Shown piece by piece: positions 5,413 through 24,840 of a DNA stretch of 34,848 nt. The notes beneath the pieces are model-generated. The model did not search any database. It saw nothing but the letters and a program-made list of their open reading frames with translations, and was not told the origin of the DNA. The DNA is from Elusimicrobia bacterium HGW-Elusimicrobia-3 (lineage in GTDB: Bacteria; Elusimicrobiota; Elusimicrobia; Elusimicrobiales; UBA9959). Position 1 is the stretch's first letter. The number at the start of each line of letters is the position of its first letter. The stretch is from positions 1 to 34,848 of the forward strand of contig PHAL01000029.1 in NCBI GenBank assembly GCA_002840355.1, written 5' to 3'. The position numbers and the translations under genes were made by a program.

Positions 5413-6852
5413 ATGGAAGTCAGGACCAGATTCGCCCCCAGCCCGACGGGCTACATGCATATCGGCAACCTCCGCACGGCGCTCTACGCCTACCTCTACG
5501 CCCGCAAGAACAAGGGCGTCTTCATCCTGCGCATAGAGGATACCGACCAGGCCCGCCTGGTGGGGGACAGCGTTAAGGTGATCTACGAGAGCCTGGCCGT
5601 GACCGGCCTGGAACACGACGAGGGTCCGGACAAGGGCGGCCCGGTGGGGCCTTACGTGCAGAGCGAGCGCAAGCCTATCTACCGCGAGTACGCGGACAAA
5701 CTGCTGGCCTCCGGCCAGGCCTACCGCTGCTTCTGCGAGAAGACCGAGAAGCAGGAGGAGCCCGGCGAGGAGCAGGACGGCCCGATACTGGGTTACGACG
5801 GGCGCTGTTCCAGGCTGAGCGAGGCGGAAATCCAGCAGAAGCTGTCGGCCGGCCTGCCTTTCGTCATCAGGCAGAAGATAGACCGCGAGGGCAGCACCAC
5901 GTTCAAGGATTTCGTCTACGGCGAGATCACCGTGGACCACAAGCAGCTCGACGACCAGATCCTGCTCAAGCGCGACGGCTTCCCGACTTACAATTTCGCC
6001 AACGTGGTGGACGACCATTTGATGGGCATCACGCACGTGATGCGCGGCTGCGAGTATATCTCGTCTACGCCCAAGTACCTGCTGCTCTACGGCGCCTTCG
6101 GCTGGACCGCCCCGGAGCACATACACCTGCCCCATATCATGGGCGCCAACGGCAAGAAGCTGTCCAAGCGCGAGGGCAGCGCGGCGCTGTCCGACCTGCT
6201 GAACAAGGGCTTCCTGCCCGAGGCCATCCTCAATTACATCGCGCTGCTCGGCTGGAACCCCGGCACCGAGCAGGAATTCTTCACCAAGGCCGACCTGATA
6301 GAGAAGTTTGACATAGCCCGCATCGGCAAGGCGCCGGCCATGTTCGACGAGACCAAGCTGGCCTGGCTCAACGCCCAGCACGTGAAGGCGCTGCCCCCGG
6401 AGAAGGCGCACGAGCTGTTCCTGAAATTCTATCCCGAGGCCGTCGTTAAGGGCTTCGACGCCGCCAAACTGACCGGCTACATACAGGGCAAGGTGGAGAA
6501 GCTCTCCGACATCCCGGCCATGGTGGCTTTCCTGACCCGGCTGGACGAGCAGTACTCGGCGGAGCTTTTCGTCCACGCCAAGAACAAGACCACTCTCGAG
6601 AGCAGCAAGGCGACGCTGGGTGAACTGCAGGGCATTCTTTCCGTCCTGCCGGCCTGGGATTACGCCTCCATACTCGCCGCCGTGAAAGGCTATGCCGAGG
6701 CCAAGGGCGCCAAGCTGGGCCCGGTGATGTGGCCGCTGCGCATAGCCATCTCCGGCCAGGCTGTCACGCCCACCGGCGCCGTGGAAATAGCGGAGCTGCT
6801 CGGCAAACCCGAAACCCTCCGCCGCGTCTCCCTGGCCATAGCTAAATTATAG
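5413..6852 (+). CDS. gltX: Glutamyl-tRNA synthetase (GluRS)
   Basis: This 479-residue class I synthetase attaches glutamate to tRNA-Glu. The HIGH-type motif is HIGN at residues 16-19 within PSPTGYMHIGNL, and the KMSKS motif is KLSKR at 249-253. The C-terminal ~150 residues form the anticodon-binding helical domain. An AAGGA ribosome site lies about 9 bases before ATG 5413. It closes the glnS-nadK-recN-gltX block; a 550-base non-coding region follows. Because glnS is also present, this GluRS is probably discriminating for tRNA-Glu. Confidence 0.96.
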   Translation: MEVRTRFAPSPTGYMHIGNLRTALYAYLYARKNKGVFILRIEDTDQARLVGDSVKVIYESLAVTGLEHDEGPDKGGPVGPYVQSERKPIYREYADKLLASGQAYRCFCEKTEKQEEPGEEQDGPILGYDGRCSRLSEAEIQQKLSAGLPFVIRQKIDREGSTTFKDFVYGEITVDHKQLDDQILLKRDGFPTYNFANVVDDHLMGITHVMRGCEYISSTPKYLLLYGAFGWTAPEHIHLPHIMGANGKKLSKREGSAALSDLLNKGFLPEAILNYIALLGWNPGTEQEFFTKADLIEKFDIARIGKAPAMFDETKLAWLNAQHVKALPPEKAHELFLKFYPEAVVKGFDAAKLTGYIQGKVEKLSDIPAMVAFLTRLDEQYSAELFVHAKNKTTLESSKATLGELQGILSVLPAWDYASILAAVKGYAEAKGAKLGPVMWPLRIAISGQAVTPTGAVEIAELLGKPETLRRVSLAIAKL

Positions 6853-7392: not shown

Positions 7393-7414
7393 TTTCATAG
7401 CGACTACTATGAAA
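7393..7414. promoter_or_regulatory. Inverted repeat spanning the start codon of the GYF-domain gene
   Basis: TTTCATAG at 7393-7400 and CTATGAAA at 7407-7414 are perfect reverse complements separated by six bases. The right arm contains the ATG at 7409. A possible -10 box, TAGAAT, lies at 7387-7392, so the dyad would sit at the transcription start. It could be an operator or an RNA hairpin that hides the start codon. No Shine-Dalgarno sequence is present. Confidence 0.5.
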
Positions 7415-9844
7415 TACTGGTTCTACTCAGAAGGCAATATCCTAGGCCCTTACGAGCCGGCAGAAATGCTGGCCCTGCCCGCTTTTGCCGACGAGAGCCT
7501 GGTCTGCCCCGAGAGCGCCACCGGCGACAACCCCGGCGACTGGCGCCCCGCCTCCCAGGTGGCCGAGATAGCGGCCGCCCTCAGCGTGGGCGTGGGGCAC
7601 ACCGTCAGCGCCGGCGCCATGACCGGCTCCTACGAGTATGAGACCGGCTTCAGCTCCTCCGTGAACTATTTCGACAACCGCGAGCCCGCGGCCGGCGCCA
7701 GCTACGGGGAACTGCTCGACACCATAGACAATATCCTGGGCGCCTATAAAGAAGGCCCCGCCGCCCCCGGCAAGCCCGCCGAGACCGATTACGACCTGGC
7801 CGAGAAGTTCGACATCCGCCTCTCCCGCATACAGGAAGAGCTGGAGGCCGCCCGCTGGGAGAAGAACCTCCTCCTCGAGAAAATGCGCATGAAGGAGATG
7901 GAGGAGAAGAAGAACAAGGCCCGCATAGAGGAGCTCGAGGCCCGCCTCAAGGGCGAGAAGGAAAAACTGGACGGCAGCGTGAAGGAGACCGCGCAGGCCC
8001 TGCACCTGGCCGATCTGAAAGACAAGGCCGAAACCCTGCGCCAGATAGAAGAGATCAAGAAAGAAGAACTTTCGCTGAAAGAAGACGAGGCCCGCCGGCC
8101 CGCGCCCGCCCCCGCTGCCGAAGCGGCAGGCGTGCCGGTTCCCGAGGCGGCCGCGGAGCCGGTTTCCGAGACCCCCGCCGAGCCCGAGGCGCCCGCCGTT
8201 GAACCCCGCGGCTTTAAGGCCCAGCCCATCTCCGCCGCGGCTTTCCCCGAGACGGCCCCCGCCGCCGACCAGGCCGCCCCCAGGATAGAGACCCGCTCCT
8301 TCAAGAGCATCAAGGCCGGCGCCGAGATAAAGCTCGCCCGCACCGTGGGGGACGAACTCAAGGAAGAGGCAGAAGACCCCGGCATGACCAAGCGCTCCTT
8401 CAAGAGCCTCGGCCAGACCCAGCCTCCGGCTTACGTCTACGGCTCCCATTATGACAAGCCGCTCCCCGGCCCCGAGGCCGCGCCCGCCGGCGCTTTCCCC
8501 GAAGCCGCGTCCGAGCCCCTGCCCCAGCAGGCCGGCGGCATAGTGTACGACTTCACCGTGGTCACCACCAGGCCCGCGGACGTGCAGCAGTTCAAGATCG
8601 AGGCCCGCCAGGAGCAGCCCATAGATTACAGGCCGGTCAAGCCGCCTACCTACGACATGGGCATACAGCAGGCCGCCCCCGCGCCGCAGGCCCAGCCGGC
8701 GCCTCAGGCCCAGCCCCAGCCCGCGGCGAGCCCGGCCCCTGCCCCCGCTCAGGCGCAGCAGCCTTTCCAGTTCCAGCCCGCCTACCAGGCGCCCGCACAG
8801 GCCCCCACGCCCACTTTCCAGCAGGCGGCCCAGGCCCAGCCCGCTTACCAGTTCCAGCCCGGCGCCGCGGCCCAACCCGCGCCGGCCCCCGCTCCCGTGG
8901 CGCAGATGGCCCCGGCCGCCGCCGCGCCCCAGGCCGCCCCTGCTCCCGCCGCTGCCCCCGAGGCCGGCCCCGATTCTCCCGATAAGACCGTGCGCCTGGT
9001 CATGCCCTCGCAGAAAGGCAAGCCGGCGGTGAAGGCGGATGAAAAGCCCCGCAAGAAGGGCGGCAGGACGGCTTTCCTGGCCATACTCGTGATCTTCGGC
9101 TCCATAGCCGCCGGCGGTCTCGGTTACTTCTTCCTCGGCGAGGGCGTAACTTTCTCTGAATTCTCGATGCTGAGCCTGGGCGGCAAGAAGAAGCCTTCCA
9201 CCCTGCCCAGCCAGCTTGACCCCCAGGCCGGCGAGGATGCCGCCGCCCGGACCGCCGCGCCCGTAGCGCAGCCCGAGGCCGAGGCGCAGCCCGCGCCCGC
9301 TCCGGCTCCCGCGCAGCAGCCCGTCAACGAGAACATCAAGAAGGCCATAGACATAGTCAAGAACTACAAGCTTTCCGGCGGCCGCGGCGGCATAGCCACC
9401 TGGTTCGCCAATTCCTTCCTGTCCAATACCGGCGGCGCCAACGAGGAGTGGACCGCCACCCCGCTGCACGGCGACATTTTGGTGGTGCAGTACCGCCTGC
9501 TGCGGCCCAAGCAGGAGCCGCTGGTGTACCAGTTCGAGGTGGATTCGGCTAAAAGGGACATCGTGCGCGGTATCAACAATAACGCGCTGGAACTGTTGGA
9601 CTTTGCCGCCAAAGAGAAGAGCGTGAGCGCGGCCCCGGTCAGGAAAGCCGCCCCCAGGAAAGCCGCCCCCAGGAAGCCGGTGCGCAAGGTCGTCAGGAGT
9701 TCCGAACCGGATCTTCTGCCGCTGCCCGAAGCCCCCTCAGCGGGGTCCGGCGACCAGGACCCGACCGGCTTCGAGAATCCAGGGGCCGATTCCGAGCAGG
9801 TGAAGTACCTGAAGGCGCAGGAATCAGACGAGGAGCTGTTCTAA
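7409..9844 (+). CDS. GYF-domain, proline-rich single-span membrane protein next to pilus motor genes
   Basis: About 811 residues from MKYWFYSEG. Residues 1-50 resemble the bacterial GYF_2 fold (YWFYSEGNILGPYEP), a module that in other proteins binds proline-rich peptides. Residues ~130-230 form a charged coiled coil, and ~231-527 are Pro/Ala/Gln-rich and disordered, including the short motif R-[SG]-F-K-[SA] three times. Residues ~551-577 form one transmembrane helix after a basic stretch, so the N-terminal bulk is cytoplasmic. The outer part carries a compact domain (~638-731), a Lys/Arg/Ala/Pro tail with two RKAAP copies, and an acidic end. It precedes pilB by 114 bases, suggesting a pilus or secretion accessory role; this is inferred only from position. 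An upstream in-frame ATG at 7376 is less likely because homology to GYF starts at 7409. Confidence 0.75.
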   Translation: MKYWFYSEGNILGPYEPAEMLALPAFADESLVCPESATGDNPGDWRPASQVAEIAAALSVGVGHTVSAGAMTGSYEYETGFSSSVNYFDNREPAAGASYGELLDTIDNILGAYKEGPAAPGKPAETDYDLAEKFDIRLSRIQEELEAARWEKNLLLEKMRMKEMEEKKNKARIEELEARLKGEKEKLDGSVKETAQALHLADLKDKAETLRQIEEIKKEELSLKEDEARRPAPAPAAEAAGVPVPEAAAEPVSETPAEPEAPAVEPRGFKAQPISAAAFPETAPAADQAAPRIETRSFKSIKAGAEIKLARTVGDELKEEAEDPGMTKRSFKSLGQTQPPAYVYGSHYDKPLPGPEAAPAGAFPEAASEPLPQQAGGIVYDFTVVTTRPADVQQFKIEARQEQPIDYRPVKPPTYDMGIQQAAPAPQAQPAPQAQPQPAASPAPAPAQAQQPFQFQPAYQAPAQAPTPTFQQAAQAQPAYQFQPGAAAQPAPAPAPVAQMAPAAAAPQAAPAPAAAPEAGPDSPDKTVRLVMPSQKGKPAVKADEKPRKKGGRTAFLAILVIFGSIAAGGLGYFFLGEGVTFSEFSMLSLGGKKKPSTLPSQLDPQAGEDAAARTAAPVAQPEAEAQPAPAPAPAQQPVNENIKKAIDIVKNYKLSGGRGGIATWFANSFLSNTGGANEEWTATPLHGDILVVQYRLLRPKQEPLVYQFEVDSAKRDIVRGINNNALELLDFAAKEKSVSAAPVRKAAPRKAAPRKPVRKVVRSSEPDLLPLPEAPSAGSGDQDPTGFENPGADSEQVKYLKAQESDEELF

Positions 9845-9958: not shown

Positions 9959-11728
9959 ATGGCAGAGAAAGGAATATCCGTAAACATTTCAAGGCGCCTC
10001 GGGGAGATGCTTGTCTCCGCGGGCCTCGTTACCGCCGCGCAGCTGGCCGAGGTGCTGGAGATGCAGCGCACCAGCGGCGGCAAGCTGGGCCAGCTGCTGG
10101 TGCACAAGAAATTCATAGACGAGCGCAAGCTGCTGGAGTTCCTCAGCAAGCAGTTCGGTATAGAGTTCGTGGACCTGCGCGGCCTCGCCATAAAAGACGA
10201 GATCCTGAAGATCATCCCCGAGAACATCGCCCGCCGTTACGGCCTGGTGGCCGTGGATAAGACCGAGAATAAGCTGAAGGTGGCGATGGAGGACCCGCTC
10301 AACATCGTCGTCCTCGACGACCTGAAGATGATGACGGGCTTCGACATCAAGCCGGTCTTCGGGGCCGAGTCCGACATCAGCGCGGCGATAGACAAGAATT
10401 ACGGGGCCAAGACCTCCAAGGAAGCCCTGGACGACATCCTGCGCAAGACCGTCAACGGCACCACCGAGGTGTCGCTGGTGGAGGAGGACTCCAATAAAGG
10501 CGGCGGCGACGACCTGATCTCGCTGGAGGCCACGGGCGAGGCCGCGCCTATCGTGAAGATGGTCAACCTGATCATCTCCAGCGCGATCAAGGCCCACGCC
10601 TCCGACATCCATATCGAGCCGACCTACAAGGAGACCAAGGTCCGGTTCCGCATAGACGGCGTGCTGCACGCGCAGCCTTCGCCGCCCAAAAAATTCCACA
10701 ACGCCATCGTCAGCCGCCTCAAGATCATGTCCACCCTCGACATCTCCGAGCGCCGCATGCCGCAGGACGGCCGCACCAAGCTCAAGATCGAGGACCACGA
10801 GGTGGACCTGCGCGTCTCCGTCCTGCCCTGCGGCCCGGGCGAGAAGGTGGTCATGCGCATCCTGGACTCCTCCGGCCTCAAGCTGCGGCTGGAGGACCTG
10901 GGCATGGAGCCGGAGAACCTGGCCATCTTCGCCAAGTGCCTCAAGGCCCCGCACGGCATCAATCTGGTCACCGGCCCCACCGGCTCGGGCAAATCCACCA
11001 CCCTCTATTCCGCCCTCGCCACGCTCAACGAGCCCGACGTCAACATCGTCACCATCGAGGACCCGATCGAGTACCAGCTGGAGGGCATCAACCAGGTGAT
11101 GGTCAACAACGACGTCGGCCTCACTTTCGCGGCCGGCCTGCGCTCGTTCCTGCGCCAGGACCCGGACGTGATCATGGTGGGCGAGATCCGCGATTTCGAG
11201 ACCATGGCCACCGCCATCAACGCGGCCATGACGGGCCACCTGGTCTTCTCCACGCTGCACACCAACGACGCCCCCGGCGCCATCACCCGCATAGGCATGA
11301 TGGGGGTGGAGCCGTTCCTGACCTCTTCGACGCTGCTGATGGTGGTGGCGCAGCGCCTGGTGCGCTGCATCTGCAAGGGCTGCAAGGAAACCTACGAGGT
11401 GGCGCCCGAGCTGCTGGTCAGCCTGGGGGTGCCCAGGGCTATCCTTGATAATAATATTAAAAATGGTAAAATTACCCTGTCCAGAGGGAGGGGGTGCGAC
11501 ATCTGCGCCCAGACCGGCTATAAAGGCCGCATGGGTATACACGAGATACTTGAGGTCAGCGACGCCATCAGGGCCCTGATCATAGAGAAAGCGCACACCT
11601 CGAAGATAAAAGAGGCCGCGCGCAAGAATGGCATGATCACGCTGCGCGAATCGGCCCTCCGCAAGCTTTTTTCGGGAGCGACCACGGTGGAAGAAGTCAT
11701 CCGCGTCACCGGGTCCGACGTGGATTAA
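9959..11728 (+). CDS. pilB: Type IV pilus assembly ATPase PilB
   Basis: This 589-residue hexameric ATPase powers pilus extension at the inner membrane. An N-terminal MshEN-type domain (residues ~10-150, with LGEMLVSAGLV and LGQLLVHKKFI) may bind a cyclic dinucleotide. Walker A GPTGSGKST is at 339-347, Walker B DPDVIMVGE at 401-409, and the His box STLHTNDAP follows. The zinc knuckle has Cys470, 472, 475 and Cys513, 516. Length and order are those of PilB/GspE. There is no strong ribosome site before ATG 9959. pilT starts 30 bases downstream. Confidence 0.95.
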   Translation: MAEKGISVNISRRLGEMLVSAGLVTAAQLAEVLEMQRTSGGKLGQLLVHKKFIDERKLLEFLSKQFGIEFVDLRGLAIKDEILKIIPENIARRYGLVAVDKTENKLKVAMEDPLNIVVLDDLKMMTGFDIKPVFGAESDISAAIDKNYGAKTSKEALDDILRKTVNGTTEVSLVEEDSNKGGGDDLISLEATGEAAPIVKMVNLIISSAIKAHASDIHIEPTYKETKVRFRIDGVLHAQPSPPKKFHNAIVSRLKIMSTLDISERRMPQDGRTKLKIEDHEVDLRVSVLPCGPGEKVVMRILDSSGLKLRLEDLGMEPENLAIFAKCLKAPHGINLVTGPTGSGKSTTLYSALATLNEPDVNIVTIEDPIEYQLEGINQVMVNNDVGLTFAAGLRSFLRQDPDVIMVGEIRDFETMATAINAAMTGHLVFSTLHTNDAPGAITRIGMMGVEPFLTSSTLLMVVAQRLVRCICKGCKETYEVAPELLVSLGVPRAILDNNIKNGKITLSRGRGCDICAQTGYKGRMGIHEILEVSDAIRALIIEKAHTSKIKEAARKNGMITLRESALRKLFSGATTVEEVIRVTGSDVD

Positions 11729-11758: not shown

Positions 11759-12835
11759 ATGGTAACAATGAGCGAACTGTTCATAATGATGCACGAGAAG
11801 AACGCCTCGGACATCCACATTACCGCCGGCGCCACCCCGATGCTGCGCATAGACGGCGACCTGGTGCAGACCCCTTTCGAAAAGCTCACCCCCGAGATGT
11901 GCCAGACGCTGATCTTCTCGCTGATGACCGACGCGCAGCGCCAGCGCTTCGAGGCCACCAACGAACTCGACTTCGCCTTCGGCATCAAGGGCATGGGCCG
12001 CCTGCGCATGAACGCCTACCGCCAGCGCGGCGTGGTCGGCGCGGCCATCCGCTCCATCCCGAGCAAGTACAAGACTTTCGAAGAGCTCAACCTGCCCCCG
12101 GTCGTCTATGAACTGATGAAGATGACCAAGGGCCTGCTGCTCATTACCGGCCCCACGGGCTCGGGCAAGTCCACCACGCTCGCTTCGATGATAGACTACC
12201 TCAACGAGCACCGCAACTACCATATCATCACGGTAGAGGACCCTATCGAGTACGTGCACACGCACAAGAAGAGCATAGTCAACCAGCGCGAAGTCGGCGC
12301 CGACACCGAGACCTTCGGCGCCGCGCTGCGCCACGTGCTGCGCCAGGACCCCGATGTCATCCTGATCGGCGAGCTGCGCGACCTGGAGACCATCGGCGCC
12401 GCCCTGAACATCGCCGAAACCGGCCACCTGGTGTTCGCCACGCTGCACACCTCCGACGCCGCCCAGACGATCAACCGCATCATCGACGTCTTCCCGCCGC
12501 ACCAGCAGGAGCAGATCCGCGTGCAGCTGTCGTTCGTGCTGCAGGGCGTGTTCGCGCAGCAGCTGCTGCCCCACGCCAGCGGCACCGGCCGCACCCTCGC
12601 CTGCGAGGTGCTCATCGCCAATTCCGCCGTCCGCAACCTCATCCGCGAGCAGAAGATCGAGCAGATCGCCACGATCATCCAGACCGGCGGCAAGTTCGGC
12701 ATGGTCACGATGAACCAGTCGCTCGTCGAACTTTACAAGAAGCAGAAGATCAGCTACCAGGAAGCCGTGAACCGCTCCACCGACCCCGAAGACCTCAAGA
12801 AGCTCCTGCAGAAGTCGCTGTCGGTCACGGGTTGA
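11759..12835 (+). CDS. pilT: Type IV pilus retraction ATPase PilT
   Basis: This 358-residue ATPase depolymerises pili and drives twitching or DNA uptake. Walker A GPTGSGKST is at residues 131-139, Walker B DPDVILIGELRD at 197-208, and the His box ATLHTSDA follows. The C-terminal motif reads AVRNLIRE, close to the PilT hallmark AIRNLIRE needed for retraction. It lacks the zinc cysteines of PilB, as expected. An AGGAG ribosome site lies about 12 bases before ATG 11759. pilC begins 6 bases after the stop, so the two are coupled. Confidence 0.95.
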   Translation: MVTMSELFIMMHEKNASDIHITAGATPMLRIDGDLVQTPFEKLTPEMCQTLIFSLMTDAQRQRFEATNELDFAFGIKGMGRLRMNAYRQRGVVGAAIRSIPSKYKTFEELNLPPVVYELMKMTKGLLLITGPTGSGKSTTLASMIDYLNEHRNYHIITVEDPIEYVHTHKKSIVNQREVGADTETFGAALRHVLRQDPDVILIGELRDLETIGAALNIAETGHLVFATLHTSDAAQTINRIIDVFPPHQQEQIRVQLSFVLQGVFAQQLLPHASGTGRTLACEVLIANSAVRNLIREQKIEQIATIIQTGGKFGMVTMNQSLVELYKKQKISYQEAVNRSTDPEDLKKLLQKSLSVTG

Positions 12836-12841
12836 TGAACG

Positions 12842-14041
12842 ATGCAATTCGCCTATAAAGCCAAGGACAATAACGGCAAGCTCACCGAAGGCATGGTGGA
12901 GGCGCCGGACGAGAAGGCGGCGATCGCGCGCCTGCGCGGCCAGCGCCTCTCCGTCACCGAGATCAAGGCCGGCGGCAAGGTCGGCAGGCAGGGCAAGAAG
13001 GGCGGGTCGATCGACAACAAGGACGTCGTCATCTTCTCGCGGCAGCTCTCCACGCTGGTGTCCTCCGGCGTGCCCATCGTGCAGGGCCTGACCATCCTCA
13101 GCGAGCAGGCCGAAACCCCCAACTTCAAACTGGTGCTGGGCGCGCTGCGCACCGACATCGAGGCCGGCCTTTCCATCGCCGACGCGATGAAGAAGCACCC
13201 GAACGCATTCACCGAGCTGTACGTGGCCATGATCCGCGCCGGCGAGGTGGGCGGTATCCTCGACACCATCCTCGAGCGCCTGTCCGCCTACCTGGAGGCC
13301 AACGAGGCCCTGAAGGCCAAGGTCAAGGCCGCGATGATGTACCCTATCGTCGTCTTCAGCGCCGCCGGCCTGATCACCATCTTCCTGATCGTCTTCGTGA
13401 TCCCGATCTTCAAGGATATCTTCGCCGGCTTCGGCGCCGAGCTGCCCTTCATCACGCAGATGCTGATCAACATCTCGGACTTCATGCGCTCCAAGATCCT
13501 CTACATGCTGCCGGTAATAGGCGGCCTTGTGTGGGGGATCAAGCGCTGGATGAAGACCGAGAAAGGCCGGTGGAAGGTGGACGAGCTTTCACTGAAACTT
13601 CCTGTCTTCGGCATCCTGCTCAAGAAGGTGGCCATCGCCAAGTTCAGCCGCACGCTGGGCACGCTGATCAAGTCCGGCGTGCCGATCCTGCAGGGGCTCG
13701 AGACCGTGGCCAAGACGGCCGGCAACAAGGTCATCGAGGCCGCCATCGACAACAGCCAGAAGTCCATCAAAGAGGGCGGCCGCATCTCCGACCCGCTCAA
13801 GAAGGCCAACATCTTCCCGCCGATGGTCATCCAGATGATCAGCGTGGGCGAGGAGACCGGCGGCCTCGACAACATGCTCACCAAGATCGCCGACTTCTAC
13901 GACCAGGAGGTGGACACGGCCGTGAAGGGCCTCACCTCCATGCTCGAGCCGCTGATCATGATCTTCCTGGGCGTCGTCATCGGCACTATCGTCATCGCCA
14001 TGTTCATGCCGATGTTCAGCCTGGGCGAAATGGTCGGCTAG
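12842..14041 (+). CDS. pilC: Type IV pilus inner-membrane platform protein PilC
   Basis: This 399-residue platform protein couples the PilB/PilT motors to pilin assembly. Two GspF-type helical domains (about residues 65-190 and 265-390) are separated by membrane segments; hydrophobic stretches are near residues 170-195, 220-236 and 360-390. The opening QFAYKAKDNNGKLTEGMVEA is typical of the family. It is the last gene of the pilBTC block and a strong terminator follows. No pilin, pilMNOPQ or prepilin peptidase gene is present in the window. Confidence 0.95.
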   Translation: MQFAYKAKDNNGKLTEGMVEAPDEKAAIARLRGQRLSVTEIKAGGKVGRQGKKGGSIDNKDVVIFSRQLSTLVSSGVPIVQGLTILSEQAETPNFKLVLGALRTDIEAGLSIADAMKKHPNAFTELYVAMIRAGEVGGILDTILERLSAYLEANEALKAKVKAAMMYPIVVFSAAGLITIFLIVFVIPIFKDIFAGFGAELPFITQMLINISDFMRSKILYMLPVIGGLVWGIKRWMKTEKGRWKVDELSLKLPVFGILLKKVAIAKFSRTLGTLIKSGVPILQGLETVAKTAGNKVIEAAIDNSQKSIKEGGRISDPLKKANIFPPMVIQMISVGEETGGLDNMLTKIADFYDQEVDTAVKGLTSMLEPLIMIFLGVVIGTIVIAMFMPMFSLGEMVG

Positions 14042-14167: not shown

Positions 14168-14273
14168 GACGGGGAACTGGGGGACAATAAGCAACAGCTC
14201 TTCCTTATTCCCGCATAATAAGCACAGAAACGCCGATAAACCGCGGCCGGCAATCCTTCGATAGAGGTGAATG

Positions 14274-17200
14274 ATGCGAAAATACCTTTGGGCCCTCCTT
14301 GCTGTTTTTGTCTGCTCTCTCCCTTCTCTGCTGGCCGCCGCCCCGGGTTATTACACGGACCCGTTCTCCAAGTTCCAGACCGCCGTTAAACCGGTGAGGA
14401 ACCTGCCCGACGGCGCCGCGCAGTGGAAGGCCATCGCCGCCGGCCTGGCGGCGGACCCGCTCTTCGCCTCCCTCGGCCTCGACAAGCTTACCTACTCCGG
14501 GGGCAACCAGCTCTCTTACGATTTCGACCTGCGGCTGGGCGAGATAGACCTGGACCTGAAGGGCACGCTCACCTTCGACGCGGCCGCTGCCGACGGGCAG
14601 CCCGTGGCCACTCTGACCTCCGCGGCCCAGTCCCGCACCGCGGCCGACCTGGTGGATATCGGCGCGCTGCACGCCACCTCGGCCAGCCTGGAAGCCGCCG
14701 TCTATAAGGAAAGCGGCGAGTACAAGCTCTACGCCCGGATCATCCCGAGGTTCACCAATTACAACAAGCCCCCGCTGCCTTCCCTGCTGCTGTCCAAGAG
14801 CAAAGGCGGCCTGGACTATACCGTGATAGGCGGCAATCTGGCGCTGAGGGATATCTTCCCTTTCGCGGCGCAGGCCCCGCTCTACAAGCAGTTCGCCTTC
14901 GAGAGCCTCTCCAAGAGCGGCACCACGCTGTCGGTCAAAGGCTCGGTCGGCGGCCGCGCCGTGACGGCTGCCGGCGACACCGTGAAGGATACGCTGTTCG
15001 TTACCGGCGACGGCCTCACTGCCGCCGATTTTTACCCTGAAACCGCGGCCCTGCCCCTGCTCAATGGTCTCGCTTTCGACAGTTTCTCCCTGACCGCCGC
15101 CGGCGAGGCCGTGGCCGGCCGGCTGAACGGCAAGAAAGTCTCCGTCTCCCGCGGGGCCGACAAGAAATCCTTCGCCGTGACCGGAGACGATATTAAGCTG
15201 GAAGATTTTATTCCCGCGGCGTCCCAGGTGCCCTGCGTCAACGCCCTGGCCCTGGACAGCGTACTGGCTTCCGACACCAGTCTCGCCATCTCCGGCAAGG
15301 TCAACGGCAAACCGGTTTCCGTCTCCGGTTCCCTGGCGGACAATAAAGTGGAAATGACCGGCCCAGGCCTGAGCCTGCCCTCCTGCATACCGCTGTCGCT
15401 CAACCTGCCCTATCTGAAACTCTTCAGCTTCGGCGGCCTGGTCCACTGGCCGGACCGGCTGGAAGTGGACGGCACGGTGAACGGCAAGGACGTCAAGGTG
15501 GTGTGGATCTTCGCTCCGAACACCGTCACCGTGACCGGCGAGAGCATAAAGCTCGGGGACATGATCCCCGCGGCCGCCAAGGAACCCATGCTGGAGAGCT
15601 TCGCTTTCCTGAGCCTGGAATATTCCAAGGCCGCGCTTAAAGTGAACGGCAAGGTCAGCGGCAAGGCCCTTACCGTTACTCAGGACAACGCCGCCAAGAC
15701 CTTTACGGTCTCCGGCGCCGGCCTGACCCTGGCCGATTTCATTCCCGAGGCCGCCGGCATACCCTACCTGCGCAGGTTCGACCTGAACCTGGTGCGGCAG
15801 CGCCCCGGCGGCGTGCTGGTAGCCGGGGACGTGGCCGGCAAGGCCGTCACGGTGGAGAGCGACAGGGCCGCCGGCTCTTTCACGGTGACCGGCGAGGGGC
15901 TGAAGCTGGCCGACTTCGTGCCGGAGGCCTCGCAGATCGCCTTCCTCGACGCTTTCGCGCTCGACGGCGTGCGCAGCTCGGCAGACGAGTTCGTGGTGAC
16001 CGGGAAGGTCGGCGACAAGGCCGTGATGGTGGACGACCACCTCGCCAGCAATATCTTCACGGTGACCGGGCAGGACCTTAAACTTTCCGATTTCTTCCCG
16101 GACACCAAGGCCATCCCCGCGCTGGACCGGTTCGCTTTCGACAGCTTCACCCATACCGCCGACTCCGTGGAGGCGGCCGGCAAGCTCAACGGCAAGGCCG
16201 TAAGCGTAGCACGCAATGCCGGGACCGCGGAACTGACCGTAAAAGGCGCGGGACTCAAGCTGTCCGATTTCGTGCCGCAGGCCTCCGGCGCCCCCTACCT
16301 CGACCGGTTCGCCTTCCTGGACATGACCTGGACCCCGGGTGTGACCCGCGTGGACGGCACGGTTAACGGCAAGAACGTTTCGGTTAACCTCGACAACGCG
16401 AAGAAGACCTACACGATATCCGGCTCGGCTATGAAACTGTCCGATTTCGTGCCGCAGGCCGCGAAACTCACCTACCTCGAGAATTTCGACCTCGAGAGCG
16501 TGCAGAGTTCCACCGGGAGCGTCACGGTCAAGGGACACGTGGAAGGCAAAAGGCTCGCCATCGAGGTCGCCAAAACCGGCGGGGCCTTCGAGGTCACCGG
16601 CGAGGACCTGAAGCTCAAGGACTTCATAGCCGAGGCGGCCTCCGTGGCTTACCTGGACAATTTCATGTTCGACCGTTTCGCCTGGTCGCCCGACCGCATG
16701 GCGGCGGACGGGAAGATCCACGGCAAAAGCGTCGCCGTGGTAAAAAAACAGGATTCCCCGGAATTTTCCGTGACAGGCGACGACCTCAAGCTCTCCGATT
16801 TCGTCCCCGGCGCGGCCCAGGTCGCCTGCGTGAACGCCTTCGCCCTGGACAAAGTGAGCCGCTCGGCTGCGGAACTCGCCATAGCGGGCAAAATAGACGG
16901 CAAGCCCGTCGCGGTCTCCGCGGCGGCGGACGGCAAGGTCTCCATGACCGGCACGGGCCTGAGCCTGCCCGCCTGCATCCCTCTCTCCCTGAACATCCCC
17001 TTCCTTAAGTGGTTCAGCTTCGGCGGGCTTTTCTACTGGCCCGACCGGCTGGAGATAGACGGCACGGTCAACGGCAAGGCGGTCAAAGTGGTCTGGGTAT
17101 TCGCGCCCGACACCGTCACCCTCACCGGCGACTCTATCAAGCTGGCCGACCTGGTGCCGGCCGCCGCAAAGGTGCCCGAGCTGAACAACTTCGCCTTCCT

Positions 17201-20200
17201 GTCCATGCTCTACGGCCCGTCCGGGACGACCGTCTCCGGCCGGCTGAACGAGAAAGCCGTCAGCGTCATCGTCTCGAAGGCCGACGGCTCTTTCGAGATA
17301 AAGGGCGACAAGCTGGTCCTGGCAGACTTCGTGCCCGAGGCGGCCTCTGTGCCCTTCCTGAATAATTTCGCCTTCTACGACTTCAAGGAGGACAAGACCC
17401 TCGTGACCGTGGAGGGGGCGATACACGGCAAAAAAGTGTCCGTCTCCAAGCCCGTCGGCGCGAGCGGCGCCTTCACCGCGACCGGCGAAGGCCTGACAAT
17501 GCGCGACATGGTCCCCGAGGCCGGCGCGCTGCGGGCCTTCGACGCGCTGCAGCTCGACCAGGTCTCCGTCTCGCAGGCGGCCGTAGAGGTCGCCGGACGG
17601 CTCAACGGCAAGGGAGTGAAGTTCGTCCGCACGCGCGGCGACAAACCCGTGGTCACCGTGACCGCCGACGCCCTCACCCTGGGCGACGTCTTCGCCCCGC
17701 TGGCCGGCCTGCCCGGAGTGAACGCCGTGGGGATAGAGAAGATAGAGCTCGACGGCAAGTCCGTCGAGGCCGAAGCCAAGCTCAACGGCGTGACCGTGGA
17801 CGTGGTCGCGCACGCCAGGGCCGGAAGCGACGGCGCCTATACCGCGATCTTCTTCGACCGCCTGGGCGCGGCCACCTTCGTTCCCGCCGCGCAGGGGAAC
17901 GTGGTCAACGACATCGCGCTGGAGAAGGCGCTTTTCGTGATACAGCCCGCCGGCTCCCCGGCTAAGACGGTAGCGGCCGCGGACCTGCCCGGCGACCTGC
18001 CGAAACTGGTCGGCTGGTCCGGAAAGGATTCCATGACGCTCTCCGAGGGCGTCAACATGTCGGCCTGGCTCAACGTGTCAGCCTCCGGCGGACTGGCGAA
18101 GGCCTTCGGGACGGCCGGCCTGCCGGCCAACGTCCGCCCCCTGCTGCGCGGCACACTGCCGCCCGGCGCCTTCAAGGGCCTGAGCGCCGGCAAAGCCGCC
18201 TCCGCGCTGTCCGACGCCGACAAGCAGTCCATGCTGGCCGGCCTCGAGCTGGAAGTGGACCTGCCGCTGCCTTCGCTGCCCGCCATCGCGGGGCTGGTGA
18301 CGGTCAAGAGCCCGGTCACGCTGCGCATCGGCGGCGACGCGCGCTCCAAAAGTTCGCTCTGGGCCCGCGTGCCGGAGCCGATAGCGGCCTCGCGCCCGGC
18401 CGGCGACCTGGACGTCTCGGTGCAGTTCGGCCTCGACATAAAAGGCTCGGGCATAAACGAGAAGATAGACGCTCTCATCAATCTCGACAAAGGCTCGCGC
18501 GCCGGCTACAGCCTGCTGGCGCTCTACGAGGGCGCCTGGAAGGAGCCTTTCGGCATAAAGGGCTTCACGCTCGACAACGGCGGCTTCGAATTCTCCCTCG
18601 AAGGCGACAAGGGCGCGCAGAAGGACGCTGAATTCGCCTTCTTCGCCACCGCCGATATCGCCTCCAAGAAAGTCTCCGTCACCGCCGACCTCAAGCGGGC
18701 CGACGGCAAGCTCTCGCTTAACTACTTCGAGCTGGACGGCAAGTTCGGCCTCGGCGACTTCCCCGGCGGCAAGAACATTCCCGGCGCCGACAAGTTCGAG
18801 CTGGACATGGTCAAACTCTCGCCGCAGGGCATAGAGGCCGCGACCATGATAGCCGGCAAGAAGGTGAAAGCCTACCTGTTCGACGCCGGCGCGGCCGGAA
18901 CCCCGAACTGGATCTTCGCCATAGACCAGAAGAACTTCAACATAACCGAGCTCATGCCGCCGGCCAAGGACATAAAGCCGCTGGCGGCCATGACGCTGCC
19001 CGAAGCCGCGCTGATCATATCCGAGAAAGGCCTTATCGCGCCCTCCCGCGCGGGGCTGGGCGTCATAGCCAAGGACATGTTCGACGACATCTTCGGCAAG
19101 ACCGACGTGCCGCTGAACCTGCCCTCGGGCATAGCGCTGCTGGCCGCCTTCGACCAGAAGGCGATGGGCGACCTGGGCAAAGGCCTCAGCCGCCTGGGCG
19201 TGCACGAGGACGCCATCATAATGGGCGCCGTCACCGGCGTCTTCCAGGGCAACCCCGGCGTAATGCTGGCGCTGGCCATGCAGCAGCAGGGCAAGGCCCA
19301 CGGCCTGCCCGGCAAGGTCATGAGCTACAAGGACGGCGTGCAGCCTTCCTTCTTCATACAGTGGGCCGGCGAGGATTTCGACGCCGGGCTTAAGATCCCG
19401 ATGTTCGTCAAGGCCGGCAAGGACACGCTGGTACTGGCCGCCTCGCTGGAGCTCCAGTTCAACCTGGAGGGAGTGGGGATCAAGGTGCTCGGCGAGATGG
19501 ACGGGACCTGGCATCAGCCTTTCGGCATCAAGGGTTTCGCCCTGGCCAACGTGAAGATGGACGCGGCGATAGACGACGTGGGCGAGGTGCAGTTCGGCCT
19601 GGCCGGCGACCAGCAGTACGGCCACTGCGGCGACCCCAAGTCGCCCGACTGCGTGGACGTGAACCTGGCGATGAGCGTCAAGATCCTGCTCGAGGACGCG
19701 CTGCCCGACGGCGTGGCCTTCGCCGGCAGCGTAAACAAACTGAGCGTGCCCGCGCTCATGGATATCACCGAGCACCTGATGGGCCTGCCCCCGGGCAAGC
19801 TCGGCGCGCTGCCCTTCCCGTTCTTCCAGATAAACGACGCGCTGCTGGCCTTCGCCACGCCCGGCGCCTCCGACCCCCAGCTGGGCCTGGTCAGCGACGG
19901 TTTCGCCTATGGCGGAGACTTCTTCTTCATGGGCCGCGAACTGGGCAAAGTGCAGGGCACGGGCGGGCCGCAGGGCACCACGCTCAAGGGCAAGATAGAC
20001 GACATAGATCTCGACGTTCTGCAGTTCCGCAACAACGCCGTCGACATAGCGCTCAACCTGGACCCTCATTACATCATAGACTCGGATATACAGCTGCTCG
20101 GCGGCAAGCAGCACGTCAAGCTGGATATAGAGCCTCCCTACATGGAGTTCGACCTGACCGAGAAACTGGGCGTGTTCGGCGACGCGGACATGACCGTCAA

Positions 20201-22157
20201 GCTGGACGGCTTCGATCTAAAGACCGGCGCCTTCGACAAGGCGGCCGACATAAGCGTCATAGGCGCGTTCAAGTCCACGCTGGTCCCGTGGCTCAAGGGG
20301 GAGATCAAGAACGGCATAGAGGACCTGCGCGCCTCGGCCAAGGCCAAGTTCGAGGCCGACACCAAGGCCCTGCGCGACGCGGAGAAGAAAGTGGACGAGA
20401 TCAACGCCAAGATCAAGAAACTGAAGGAAGAGGACCAGAAGGCCAAGGACCGCGCCGAGGAGGCGCTCAGCTCGGCCGAAAGGCGCGTCAACTCGCTGCA
20501 GAGCACTTACGACCACGAGGAACACGAGGCGCATCACTGCGGCTCCCGCTGGACGCACTGGGCCTGCGCCCCGGGCTGGCGCATAGCCGCCGCCGCCACC
20601 TGGACGGTCAGGGAAGTCGCCGTCGGCGCCCTCGAAGCGGCCAAGAAAGCCGTCTCGGCCGCCAGCAACCTCGACCCGCGCATCGCCGGGCTCATTGCCG
20701 AGCGGGACATAGAGCACGCCGGGCTTGCCGTGGCGGAAGCGGTGGTCAAGGTGACAGAGGACGTAGAGGACTTCGTCATGAAGGAACTCGAGAAGGTCCT
20801 CGAGTCCACGGTATCCCATCTGCCGCTCGAGATAGACCAGGCCGTGATAATCGGCGACCTGCGCGGCATGATACTGCGCAACGAACCGATGGTGCTGGAC
20901 ATGAAGTTCAAGCTGGCCGGGAGCGCGCAGCGCCAGTACTTCGCGGTGAAGGTGCCGGACAGCGCCGAGAACGCGCAGTTCGACGCGGTCTCGTTCGCCC
21001 TGCTACCGGCCCTGGGTCTGGACGCCATCACCGAGGCCCCGCTCAAGAAGATCTCGCCCGACGCGTCCAAATGGGTCCATTCCCATATCGCCGTCAAACT
21101 CGCGGCCGCGCAGGAGAACGTGCGCAACCAGGTGGGAGCAGAAGAGGAGAGGTATAAGAAAGTGCTGGATTCCTTCGAGAACGGCACCGCCAAGTACCGC
21201 AAGGCCTTCGAGGACCAGGCCGAGGAGCACCTCAGGCTGGTGTCGGAGCTGGAGATCACCGACCTGATGCCCGACAGCCTGCAGTACTCCAACACCTACC
21301 TGGCGATAGGCCACAGCAATCTCTGCCTGGCCGTCTCCAAGGACGGGATGAGCGTGGAACAGATACACTGCAAGGACACCGACGCCGAGCAGTGGCACAC
21401 GGTGGCGCTCAAGGACGACGACAAGGGCTACGTGGAACTGCGCAACAAGGGGCTCTGCCTCAAGGCGCGCAACGGCGACGCCAAGGATAACTACGAGCCG
21501 CTCATCCTGGCCGCCTGCGACACCAAGGACAGCCACCAGCAGTGGAAGATCGTCTCCTCGGACGGCTTCTACGACCAGATAGTCAACCGCTTCTCCCAGA
21601 AGTGCCTGCACTTCGACAAGGAGAACGCCAATCCGCGCTCGGCCTTCGCGGTCTGGACGTCCTGCCTGGGCAACGACAGCCAGACCTTCCGCGATATCAC
21701 CGACGCTGAGAAACCGACCCTCCGCAAGGCCAACGAGCTCGTGAAGGCCTCCAACGGCCTCTGCCTGGACGTTATAGAGGAGACGGAGGGCTCGCTGCAG
21801 CTGACCGCGCAGAACAAGGAGGCGAAACTATACGCCCACCCTTGCGGCGACAAGAGCGAGCGCTTCAACTACATAGAGGAAGTGGACGGCGATATACGGC
21901 TGGTGCACACCGAGACCGGCGCCTGCGTCTACCCGCAGGAGAAGTCGCGGACGCTGGCGCTCCGGGCCTGCGACCGCGGCCAGGACATGTTCTGGCGGCT
22001 TAACGTTGCGGACAACAATACGATGCAGCTCTTCAACCCGAGCAGGAATTCTTGTATGATAATGCCTGCTCCCGACAAGGGAACGTCTAACTACAAGGAG
22101 GCCGGGATAGCCCCGTGCGCCGCCGACGGCGCGCAGCTCCTGGACCTGGTAAAATGA
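14274..22157 (+). CDS. Giant secreted repeat protein with C-terminal ricin-type lectin region
   Basis: About 2,627 residues. A signal peptide (residues 1-~23, ending LLAAA) directs export. Residues ~190-1183 hold about seventeen tandem units of ~59 residues, with consensus L-x-D-F-[VI]-P-E-A-A, x-L-x-x-F-A-F-D, V-x-G-K-[VL]-N-G-K-x-V-x-V, F-x-V-T-G. Residues 1184-2015 are a beta-rich region with two copies of PFGIKGF preceded by Trp (near 1425 and 1749). Residues ~2016-2079 form a coiled coil, followed by a His/Cys-rich patch (2080-2098). The end (~2338-2626) has six C-L/Q-x-W-like subdomains, matching two ricin-type beta-trefoils that bind sugars. I do not recognise the repeat family. Two ATGs occur; GAGG at 14264-14267 sits six bases before ATG 14274 but only three before 14271, so the second is preferred. 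The stop overlaps the next start (ATGA). Confidence 0.85.
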   Translation: MRKYLWALLAVFVCSLPSLLAAAPGYYTDPFSKFQTAVKPVRNLPDGAAQWKAIAAGLAADPLFASLGLDKLTYSGGNQLSYDFDLRLGEIDLDLKGTLTFDAAAADGQPVATLTSAAQSRTAADLVDIGALHATSASLEAAVYKESGEYKLYARIIPRFTNYNKPPLPSLLLSKSKGGLDYTVIGGNLALRDIFPFAAQAPLYKQFAFESLSKSGTTLSVKGSVGGRAVTAAGDTVKDTLFVTGDGLTAADFYPETAALPLLNGLAFDSFSLTAAGEAVAGRLNGKKVSVSRGADKKSFAVTGDDIKLEDFIPAASQVPCVNALALDSVLASDTSLAISGKVNGKPVSVSGSLADNKVEMTGPGLSLPSCIPLSLNLPYLKLFSFGGLVHWPDRLEVDGTVNGKDVKVVWIFAPNTVTVTGESIKLGDMIPAAAKEPMLESFAFLSLEYSKAALKVNGKVSGKALTVTQDNAAKTFTVSGAGLTLADFIPEAAGIPYLRRFDLNLVRQRPGGVLVAGDVAGKAVTVESDRAAGSFTVTGEGLKLADFVPEASQIAFLDAFALDGVRSSADEFVVTGKVGDKAVMVDDHLASNIFTVTGQDLKLSDFFPDTKAIPALDRFAFDSFTHTADSVEAAGKLNGKAVSVARNAGTAELTVKGAGLKLSDFVPQASGAPYLDRFAFLDMTWTPGVTRVDGTVNGKNVSVNLDNAKKTYTISGSAMKLSDFVPQAAKLTYLENFDLESVQSSTGSVTVKGHVEGKRLAIEVAKTGGAFEVTGEDLKLKDFIAEAASVAYLDNFMFDRFAWSPDRMAADGKIHGKSVAVVKKQDSPEFSVTGDDLKLSDFVPGAAQVACVNAFALDKVSRSAAELAIAGKIDGKPVAVSAAADGKVSMTGTGLSLPACIPLSLNIPFLKWFSFGGLFYWPDRLEIDGTVNGKAVKVVWVFAPDTVTLTGDSIKLADLVPAAAKVPELNNFAFLSMLYGPSGTTVSGRLNEKAVSVIVSKADGSFEIKGDKLVLADFVPEAASVPFLNNFAFYDFKEDKTLVTVEGAIHGKKVSVSKPVGASGAFTATGEGLTMRDMVPEAGALRAFDALQLDQVSVSQAAVEVAGRLNGKGVKFVRTRGDKPVVTVTADALTLGDVFAPLAGLPGVNAVGIEKIELDGKSVEAEAKLNGVTVDVVAHARAGSDGAYTAIFFDRLGAATFVPAAQGNVVNDIALEKALFVIQPAGSPAKTVAAADLPGDLPKLVGWSGKDSMTLSEGVNMSAWLNVSASGGLAKAFGTAGLPANVRPLLRGTLPPGAFKGLSAGKAASALSDADKQSMLAGLELEVDLPLPSLPAIAGLVTVKSPVTLRIGGDARSKSSLWARVPEPIAASRPAGDLDVSVQFGLDIKGSGINEKIDALINLDKGSRAGYSLLALYEGAWKEPFGIKGFTLDNGGFEFSLEGDKGAQKDAEFAFFATADIASKKVSVTADLKRADGKLSLNYFELDGKFGLGDFPGGKNIPGADKFELDMVKLSPQGIEAATMIAGKKVKAYLFDAGAAGTPNWIFAIDQKNFNITELMPPAKDIKPLAAMTLPEAALIISEKGLIAPSRAGLGVIAKDMFDDIFGKTDVPLNLPSGIALLAAFDQKAMGDLGKGLSRLGVHEDAIIMGAVTGVFQGNPGVMLALAMQQQGKAHGLPGKVMSYKDGVQPSFFIQWAGEDFDAGLKIPMFVKAGKDTLVLAASLELQFNLEGVGIKVLGEMDGTWHQPFGIKGFALANVKMDAAIDDVGEVQFGLAGDQQYGHCGDPKSPDCVDVNLAMSVKILLEDALPDGVAFAGSVNKLSVPALMDITEHLMGLPPGKLGALPFPFFQINDALLAFATPGASDPQLGLVSDGFAYGGDFFFMGRELGKVQGTGGPQGTTLKGKIDDIDLDVLQFRNNAVDIALNLDPHYIIDSDIQLLGGKQHVKLDIEPPYMEFDLTEKLGVFGDADMTVKLDGFDLKTGAFDKAADISVIGAFKSTLVPWLKGEIKNGIEDLRASAKAKFEADTKALRDAEKKVDEINAKIKKLKEEDQKAKDRAEEALSSAERRVNSLQSTYDHEEHEAHHCGSRWTHWACAPGWRIAAAATWTVREVAVGALEAAKKAVSAASNLDPRIAGLIAERDIEHAGLAVAEAVVKVTEDVEDFVMKELEKVLESTVSHLPLEIDQAVIIGDLRGMILRNEPMVLDMKFKLAGSAQRQYFAVKVPDSAENAQFDAVSFALLPALGLDAITEAPLKKISPDASKWVHSHIAVKLAAAQENVRNQVGAEEERYKKVLDSFENGTAKYRKAFEDQAEEHLRLVSELEITDLMPDSLQYSNTYLAIGHSNLCLAVSKDGMSVEQIHCKDTDAEQWHTVALKDDDKGYVELRNKGLCLKARNGDAKDNYEPLILAACDTKDSHQQWKIVSSDGFYDQIVNRFSQKCLHFDKENANPRSAFAVWTSCLGNDSQTFRDITDAEKPTLRKANELVKASNGLCLDVIEETEGSLQLTAQNKEAKLYAHPCGDKSERFNYIEEVDGDIRLVHTETGACVYPQEKSRTLALRACDRGQDMFWRLNVADNNTMQLFNPSRNSCMIMPAPDKGTSNYKEAGIAPCAADGAQLLDLVK
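14846..17820 (+). repeat. Coding repeat array, ~17 units of ~59 codons, with a nine-unit super-duplication
   Basis: Each unit carries an L-x-D-F-x-P element, here spaced 59 residues apart in the cleanest stretch. Two special units contain IPLSLN and WPDRLE plus FAP-x-TVT; they lie about 1,596 bases apart (about 15,370 and 16,965), which is nine 59-codon units. The neighbours on both sides also match, for example PCVNALALDS and ACVNAFALDK. This shows that a block of about nine units was duplicated as a whole after the first units arose. Confidence 0.8.
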
Positions 22158-24064: not shown

Positions 24065-24840
24065 TGAAGGGCGCGCTCCTGACGCTGCTGCTCCGGCTGG
24101 CGGCCGCTCCCGCGGCCGCCGCGGACGCGGCCGGGCTCCAGGAGACATTCGCCGCCGTCGCGGGCTCGGCCGCTCCCGCGGTAGTTTCGGTGTACTCCGG
24201 CGGTCCGGCGGCCGCCGCCCGTCCGCCCTTCGGCGAACCGGACGACCTGTTCGGACAGTCGTTGCTCGGCCGTGAACAGGCTGCCGCCGTTCCGGGGAAA
24301 ATCCCTCCCGCCGCTTATCACCGCTCCGGCTCGGGGCTGCTGGTAGACCCGGCCGGATACATACTTACCAACGAACATGTCGTGCGGGGCAGCACGGCCC
24401 CCGTGGTCGTTCTTGCGGGCGATCCCGGGCGGGAATTCCCGGCCGAGGTGATAGGCTCGGACAGGGATAAGGATCTTGCGCTGCTTAAGATCTCCGCCGG
24501 CGGACCGCTGCCTTTCATGCGGCTGGGCTATTCGATTCCGCCGCGGGCCGGCGACTGGGCCATCGCTCTTGGCAATGCCCTGGGAATGGAAGGCTCTATT
24601 ACCGTAGGGGTGGTCTCATCGCCCCGCCGCGTGCTCAAGTCTCCGGGCGGAGCCGCCCGCGAAGCCCTGCAGACCGACGCGGCCATAAACCCCGGTAACT
24701 CAGGCGGGCCGCTGTTGAATTTGAAAGGTGAAGTGATAGGGCTGAACGCGGCCAGCTACGCGCCGGCCGGCCCCTATCCCGGCATAGGCTTCGCCATCCC
24801 CGCCTCCGCCGCCAGCGCCTTCCTGCAAAAGCACCGCTGA
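24064..24840 (+). CDS. Secreted trypsin-like (HtrA/DegP-type) serine protease without PDZ
   Basis: 258 residues. A short hydrophobic N-terminus ending in AAAPAAAA is a plausible signal peptide, placing it in the periplasm or outside. The triad is His105 (TNEHVV), Asp137 (RDKDLALLKI) and Ser213 (NPGNSGGPLL), the normal HtrA arrangement. It stops shortly after the protease domain, with no PDZ domain, unlike DegP or DegS. The start ATG overlaps the upstream stop by one base (TGATG), so it is the third gene of the operon. It could process or quality-control the giant protein or secretin; that role is inferred from coupling only. Confidence 0.88.
   Translation: MKGALLTLLLRLAAAPAAAADAAGLQETFAAVAGSAAPAVVSVYSGGPAAAARPPFGEPDDLFGQSLLGREQAAAVPGKIPPAAYHRSGSGLLVDPAGYILTNEHVVRGSTAPVVVLAGDPGREFPAEVIGSDRDKDLALLKISAGGPLPFMRLGYSIPPRAGDWAIALGNALGMEGSITVGVVSSPRRVLKSPGGAAREALQTDAAINPGNSGGPLLNLKGEVIGLNAASYAPAGPYPGIGFAIPASAASAFLQKHR

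What the first reader, a model, noticed from the sequence alone, without database searches (positions are those of the whole stretch)
7409..9844. GYF domain and long proline-rich tract in one membrane protein next to pilBTC
GYF modules bind proline-rich peptides, and this protein carries both a GYF-like domain and about 300 Pro/Ala/Gln-rich residues, cytoplasmic side, before a single membrane span. It could self-associate into clusters, for example as a polar scaffold for the pilus motor.
Basis: inference. Interest (0 to 1): 0.5.

Follow-up and report, generated by a model that had tools for sequence, protein, structure and literature searches.

The report
Pilus-linked GYF membrane adaptor in Elusimicrobia
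This gene makes an inner-membrane protein with a peptide-binding-type domain inside the cell and a small folded domain outside the membrane, and in one bacterial class it has mostly stayed beside the gene for the pilus-retracting motor, so it may tether or control that motor.

Summary
The gene at 7409-9844 encodes 811 aa: a predicted GYF-fold domain (1-62), a conserved coiled coil, a ~310-residue Pro/Ala/Gln-rich disordered tract and one membrane helix. Sequence support for GYF is weak (Pfam GYF_2 below cut-off), but the best structural matches of the predicted domain are solved GYF domains, first that of the Myxococcus gliding protein GltJ. Linkage to pilus genes is strong: pilT follows in 65 of 69 loci. 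pilB lies between in only 34; in gut-type genomes GYF directly precedes pilT. So the likely partner is the retraction ATPase PilT. The 24 gut-type genomes searched lack a strong PilM match but keep GYF with the orthologous PilT. Self-association through the proline tract is not supported: its dense part is the least conserved segment, linker proline falls to 5-8% in six orthologs, the window copy has no PPG, and pocket residues of eukaryotic GYF domains are replaced. Best reading: a GltJ-like bitopic adaptor for PilT. Contact with PilT is inferred, not shown. New variant of a known kind; moderate interest.

The parts
7409..9844 (+). gene for the 811-aa GYF membrane protein
   Evidence: ORF and translation; orthologs; purifying selection
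7409..7594 (+). residues 1-62, predicted GYF-fold domain, cytoplasmic
   Evidence: Pfam GYF_2 sub-threshold; AlphaFold, Foldseek and VIA matches to GYF domains; Y3, G13, P14, F26, W45 in 36 of 36
7691..7753 (+). residues 95-115, short conserved motif
   Evidence: conservation 0.81 in the window's family
7787..8116 (+). residues 127-236, coiled coil with very conserved core 130-163
   Evidence: helix 128-227 in model; core conservation 0.9 in the window's family
8117..9043 (+). residues 237-545, Pro/Ala/Gln-rich disordered tract
   Evidence: composition; mostly pLDDT under 50; low conservation except about 330-395
8396..8593 (+). residues 330-395, conserved island inside the disordered tract
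   Evidence: conservation 0.77 over 337-395 in the window's family, 0.2 in the gut family
9062..9136 (+). residues 552-576, membrane helix, positive flank on the N side
   Evidence: model helix; hydropathy and charge in 47 orthologs
9317..9622 (+). residues 637-738, folded domain after the span, presumably periplasmic (two helices, four strands, helix)
   Evidence: block pLDDT 90-95 for 641-730 except 65 at 671-680; conservation 0.84 and 0.57 in the two families; no confident PDB match
9794..9841 (+). residues 796-811, near-invariant C-terminal tail of the window's family
   Evidence: conservation 0.93 in 28 rows, absent from the 19 gut-family rows
9959..11728 (+). pilB, extension ATPase (variable neighbour)
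   Evidence: TIGR02538 E 7.1e-195, under its cut-off; not between GYF and pilT in 31 of 65 linked loci
11759..12835 (+). pilT, retraction ATPase (constant neighbour)
   Evidence: TIGR01420 495 bits, over cut-off; tree of locus copies
12842..14041 (+). pilC, platform protein
   Evidence: T2SSF E 5.5e-69

Best explanation
It is a bitopic inner-membrane adaptor for the retraction ATPase PilT. In the cytoplasm the GYF domain, a short motif and a coiled coil form a docking unit, probably for PilT or for a protein that controls PilT. The long disordered tract is a flexible tether, or a hub of short motifs, between that unit and the membrane. One helix crosses the membrane, and the folded domain beyond it fixes the protein to the pilus base or cell wall. 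The layout works like GltJ of Myxococcus gliding. Shown here by computation: a conserved gene, a predicted GYF fold, predicted topology, a second predicted folded domain, and inherited linkage to one PilT lineage, also where PilB is not beside it and PilM is not found. Inferred: contact with PilT, tethering, the periplasmic anchor, and any control of retraction.
For: Of 69 loci from named records, 65 have pilT downstream on the same strand: 34 with pilB between, 31 without; 3 of the other 4 end with the contig. Where pilT is next the median gap is 20 bases (31 loci). In the 24 gut-family loci, pilT is beside GYF, or beside its profile match in L036, while the window's nadK, recN and pilC are not detected in the stretch held. 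PilT of 30 GYF loci, window included, plus the relocated G034 copy form one clade (96/94), so the gut-family copies tested are orthologs of the window's pilT. PilM (PF11104, E<=1e-20) is found in 34 of 37 genomes of the window's family and 0 of 24 of the gut family, yet all 24 have a match to the GYF protein. G036 (89% complete) has no such PilM, no pilB between, and keeps GYF-pilT. Fold. The two folded domains are among the most constrained parts.
Against: No interaction or localisation data. PilT copies 62-68% identical to the window's sit in pil clusters with no GYF gene seen nearby in G084, G106, G154 and in other classes, so PilT does not need it in general; these copies were not put in the tree. 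Linkage is broken in L104, G034, G128 and G108. In 34 of 65 linked loci pilB, not pilT, is the next gene. Pocket residues of eukaryotic peptide binders are missing. The three relatives without the gene (G002, G005, G007) have contig ends or missing neighbours at that point, so co-loss could not be tested. Weak PilM-like matches do exist in gut genomes.
Confidence: 0.45

Rival explanations
1. One reading: the GYF domain binds the protein's own proline tract, so molecules cluster into a polar scaffold for the pilus motor.
For: A predicted GYF-fold domain and a 309-aa P/A/Q-rich tract occur in one chain; 34 of 47 aligned orthologs print a linker proline fraction of 0.14 or more.
Against: The dense tract is the least conserved segment; with residues 237-336 it has the highest dN in three of four comparisons, while against L010 the C-terminal tail exceeds it. 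Linker proline is only 5-8% in L034, L035, L037, L039, L055 and L067, and PPG occurs at most once per ortholog and not in the window copy. Alanine content follows G+C (rho 0.85). Pocket positions are replaced.
Confidence: 0.12
2. It is a structural part of the pilus base on the periplasmic side, in the manner of PilO/PilP-type alignment proteins, and the GYF part only recruits a cytoplasmic partner that is not PilT.
For: The domain after the span is about as conserved as the GYF domain, and pilus genes are adjacent.
Against: It is kept in gut genomes without a strong PilM match. The one gut cluster read (G045) has its own weak PilM, a PilO and a secretin elsewhere in the genome. Outgroup pil clusters lack it.
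Confidence: 0.2
3. It is a passenger gene, co-transcribed with gltX and the pil genes but with a different role in the envelope.
For: Some genomes keep it after gltX and apart from pilBTC (G034, G128, G108). Paralogs sharing the N-terminal domain lie at other loci.
Against: The gltX-GYF-pilT order survives where other gene order is lost, and the partner PilT is one lineage.
Confidence: 0.15

Closest known systems
GltJ/AgmX of Myxococcus xanthus gliding motility (GYF domain structure 7z3c)
   Same: Listed as a 674-aa potential integral membrane protein (PMC3169522, passages). Its GYF domain is the top Foldseek match of the window domain, E 0.19; VIA Z 4.3, 3.5 A over 58 residues, 22% identity. 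Both lie with motor genes.
   Different: GltJ serves the gliding machine and is named an MglA effector (PMC12288465, one passage). The window protein lies beside pilT and has one cysteine, so no zinc ribbon; that GltJ has one is recalled. No Arf/MglA-type match in a short frame was found in 9 genomes.
Bacterial GYF_2 domain proteins (Pfam PF14237)
   Same: N-terminal domain aligns over 49 of 50 profile positions.
   Different: Below the curated cut-off; no other Pfam match at E<=1 in the window protein.
Bd0075 of Bdellovibrio bacteriovorus
   Same: Cytoplasmic domain resembling GYF in a membrane protein (PMC12034629, passages).
   Different: No pilT linkage is mentioned in the passages I saw. 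No sequence comparison was made.
Eukaryotic GYF domains (GIGYF1/2, SMY2, CD2BP2)
   Same: Fold matches to GIGYF1 and SMY2; weak profile match to GIGYF1 and GIGYF2, E 0.13 and 0.17.
   Different: The W..GYF half of the signature is reduced to an invariant F26.

Membership tests
GYF-fold domain | GYF fold (of the predicted model) | tested here: met
   The top 7 of 35 Foldseek matches are GYF domains, best E only 0.19; VIA's 10 entries include GIGYF1, GltJ, GIGYF2 and SMY2, Z 3.6-4.5, below TOC-TIC rows at 5.2-6.1
Pfam GYF_2 (PF14237) | score over the curated cut-off of 25.8 bits | tested here: not met
   19.6 bits for the first 80 residues, 12.6 for the full protein; 31 of 36 N-terminal pieces match at E<=1
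Eukaryotic peptide-binding GYF (PF02213 type) | W-x-Y ... GPF ... W ... GYF signature (first W-x-Y part recalled; rest quoted in PMC12034629) | tested here: not met
   First half kept in most rows; no W at position 23 and no Y at 25 in 36 rows, F26 in all
GltJ family | N-terminal zinc ribbon (recalled) | tested here: not met
   One cysteine in the whole protein
GltJ family | GYF domain, one membrane span, folded part beyond it (GltJ side partly recalled) | tested here: met
   for the window protein
GltJ family | works with the GTPase MglA | tested here: inconclusive
   Arf-model matches in 9 genomes lie in open frames of 299-851 aa, none of MglA size (size recalled)
Type IV pilus operon component | conserved linkage with pil genes | tested here: met
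   65 of 69 loci
Type IV pilus operon component | needed for pilus assembly or retraction | not testable with these tools
   needs a mutant

The most novel reading that the evidence does not exclude
Elusimicrobia evolved a family of GYF-headed bitopic adaptors, each tied to a different envelope motor: this one to PilT, and a paralog in the same genome encoded 3 kb from MotA/MotB-type proton-channel genes. If so, GYF adaptors would be a general way to connect bacterial motors to the envelope, and this one would be a dedicated PilT tether that outlived a replacement of the pilus machine.
Probability: 0.25. Interest if true: 0.65.

Novelty: new variant of a known kind. Interest (0 to 1): 0.48.

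Why it matters
How PilT is held at, or kept away from, the pilus base is not settled (recalled). A membrane protein that stays with one PilT lineage where PilB has moved away and PilM is not found is a direct candidate for a PilT tether or switch. It would also carry the GltJ-type layout from gliding to pili and to another phylum. My searches for GYF with pilus, GltJ, motility or PilT, and for Elusimicrobia with type IV pili or PilT, listed no title that describes it; I opened passages of one of those papers only (PMC12034629), and the library lacks most subscription journals.

Tried and rejected
Self-binding by proline motifs: counted PPG and PxxP and linker composition in 47 orthologs; no shared motif stood out.

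Co-loss with PilT: G002, G005 and G007 seemed to lack both, but the neighbouring recN lies near a contig end (G002), is partial (G007) or is not found (G005), so this is likely assembly loss and not counted.

PilT-dependence in general: similar PilT copies occur without a GYF gene nearby in outgroups, so GYF looks like a later addition.

MglA-type control: no Arf/MglA-type match in a short frame in 9 genomes.

Known fold for the domain after the span: Foldseek best E 0.11 for the whole model, VIA Z at most 5.1 there. YpmB-, NTF2- and CaMKII-hub-like rows are not taken as kinship.

A PDB sequence search with the N-terminal profile gave an unrelated top row (butyrophilin-like, E 0.021) above GIGYF1/2.

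hhalign of A1 against three paralogs aligned only the GYF domain, so a shared outer domain in the paralogs is not shown.

G108: the phylum search placed its gene, but a profile rebuilt from A1 missed it in L172, so its identity is less sure.

Rows left out: A1 holds 47 of the orthologs found; repeats of the same gene in other loci, truncated copies and a few more (such as L007, L033, L038, L040, the 1460-aa L056) were left out. The PilT tree holds 49 rows picked from the loci held; G128_L174 is a long branch. Gene names such as coaD, recG, hrcA, grpE and dnaK in other genomes were read by eye from translations, not searched.

Full report
WHAT IS THERE. The gene at 7409-9844 (+) encodes 811 residues. 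It lies after a glutamyl-tRNA synthetase-type gene (5413-6852) and before pilB, pilT and pilC. The 69 related loci come from records titled Elusimicrobia, Elusimicrobiota, Elusimicrobiales and the like, or just bacterium, so the window is most likely from that phylum. The gene is under purifying selection, dN/dS 0.13-0.31 over its length against four relatives.

ANATOMY. An AlphaFold model from 47 orthologs (A1) has mean pLDDT 58 and pTM 0.29. Confident parts are residues 1-61, a long helix at 128-227, and a folded domain at 639-736; a membrane helix is drawn at 552-576 with lower confidence; most of the rest is under 50. The tract at 237-545 is 52% Pro+Ala+Gln. Each of 47 orthologs has one strong hydrophobic segment and none elsewhere over the threshold; net charge before it is +1 to +6 and exceeds that after it in 45 of 47, which fits N-terminus in. 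The window protein has one cysteine, C33, present in 34 of 36 N-terminal pieces.

IS IT GYF? By sequence, weakly: GYF_2 8e-4 and 19.6 bits for the first 80 residues, under the 25.8 cut-off; 31 of 36 N-terminal pieces match at E<=1 and 28 of 47 full-length proteins. By predicted fold, yes: the domain predicted alone gives seven GYF chains as the seven best Foldseek matches (GltJ, GIGYF1, SMY2), although the best E is only 0.19 and none is under 0.001. VIA lists GIGYF1 at Z 4.5 (3.2 A, 54 residues) and GltJ at Z 4.3 (3.5 A, 58 residues), below three TOC-TIC rows at Z 5.2-6.1; that the latter contain a GYF-like domain is recalled. VIA's own note says that middling Z is common. In 36 of 36: Y3, G13, P14, F26, W45. 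The W and Y of the eukaryotic W..GYF half are replaced.

LINKAGE. In the 69 loci, pilT follows on the same strand in 65; pilB lies between in 34 and not in 31; 3 of the remaining 4 stop at the contig end, and L104 has other genes in the 3 kb held downstream. In 61 of the 65 the gap to the next pil gene is 300 bases or less; in L100 it is 4 kb. In the gut-type family the usual order is gltX-GYF-pilT without pilB. The label gut-type is my reading of the record titles. Other exceptions: G034 has GYF before hrcA-grpE-dnaK-like genes and pilB-pilT-pilC on another contig; G128 and G108 have GYF after gltX and a small gene, with pilBTC elsewhere. Other families of the class still show GYF-pilB-pilT (L167, L168, L169, L171).

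WHICH PARTNER? At E<=1e-60 the window's genome has five PilT-family and six PilB-family matches; each of 24 gut-family genomes has one PilB-family and two PilT-family matches (three in G045, whose locus copy is frame-broken). In a tree of 49 PilT rows the 30 from GYF loci and the relocated G034 copy form one supported clade, with an extra copy of the own genome just outside. PilM at E<=1e-20 is found in 34 of 37 genomes of the window's family and 0 of 24 of the gut family; weaker PilM-like matches exist in the two gut genomes tested. The gut genome read, G045, has a second pilus- or secretion-type cluster with weak PilM and PilO matches, a secretin, PilB, PilC and a pilin-type protein. GYF and PilT therefore stayed together where PilB moved away and PilM is not found. 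I infer that PilT, not PilB, is the functional partner. PilT copies 62-68% identical to the window's sit in pil clusters after coaD-like genes without a GYF gene in G084, G106, G154, G101 and in three genomes of other classes (G063, G065, G067), so GYF was probably added later. Of 149 genomes across the phylum 67 match the A1 profile, only one of them outside the class, and marginally (6.2e-4); some of these matches are paralogs.

Conservation in the window's family (28 rows) is 0.87 for GYF, 0.90 for the coil core, 0.77 for 337-395, 0.84 for the domain after the span and 0.32 for 421-525. Residues 237-336 and 421-525 have the two highest dN values in three of four comparisons; against L010 the tail exceeds 421-525. 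Linker alanine follows G+C (rho 0.85 over 47 rows); proline does so among the 19 gut-family rows (rho 0.67) but not clearly over all 47 (0.22). Proline is 5-8% in six orthologs and 0.14 or more in 34 of 47, so proline richness is common though not universal. The tract looks more like a tether than a kept GYF ligand. The island at 330-395 is a better candidate for a binding motif, but only in the window's family.

COMPARISON. The nearest known kind is GltJ: its GYF domain is the top structural match. PMC3169522 lists it as a potential integral membrane protein without recognised domains, and PMC12288465 names it an MglA effector (passages seen). The window protein lacks a zinc ribbon and lies beside pilT, so I do not call it GltJ; I say it may work like it. 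Bdellovibrio Bd0075 is another bacterial membrane protein with a GYF-like domain (PMC12034629, passages).

VERDICT. Observation confirmed; interpretation partly supported; new variant of a known kind; mechanism inferred.

Noticed in passing
L047 9024-10934 (own genome, contig C83): A second GYF-headed, proline-rich protein of 637 aa lies 3 kb from MotB- and MotA-type genes; a relative (L050) also has MotA/MotB-type genes 3-5 kb away. A third copy (L049) showed none that I recognised by eye.
   Followed up: partly
14271-24840: After pilC: a 2628-aa protein with a C-terminal ricin-type trefoil lectin domain, then a TPR-secretin, then a trypsin-like protease gene.
   Followed up: partly
5413-6852 and the same place in L041, L045, L046: In these three relatives the gltX at this position is only 40-43% identical to the window's while recN beside it is 78-83% identical; in others (L042, L043, L044) gltX is 79-94%, as if two gltX types replace each other in place.
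   Followed up: no
L066 7500-8850 (G045): The locus pilT of this single-contig gut genome is split by a frame break.
   Followed up: no
9794-9841: The last 16 residues are nearly invariant in the window's family though predicted to be disordered and beyond the membrane; absent in the gut family rows.
   Followed up: no
L051 8127-8699: A short GYF-headed protein of 191 aa; similar frames of about 200 aa occur in several relatives.
   Followed up: no
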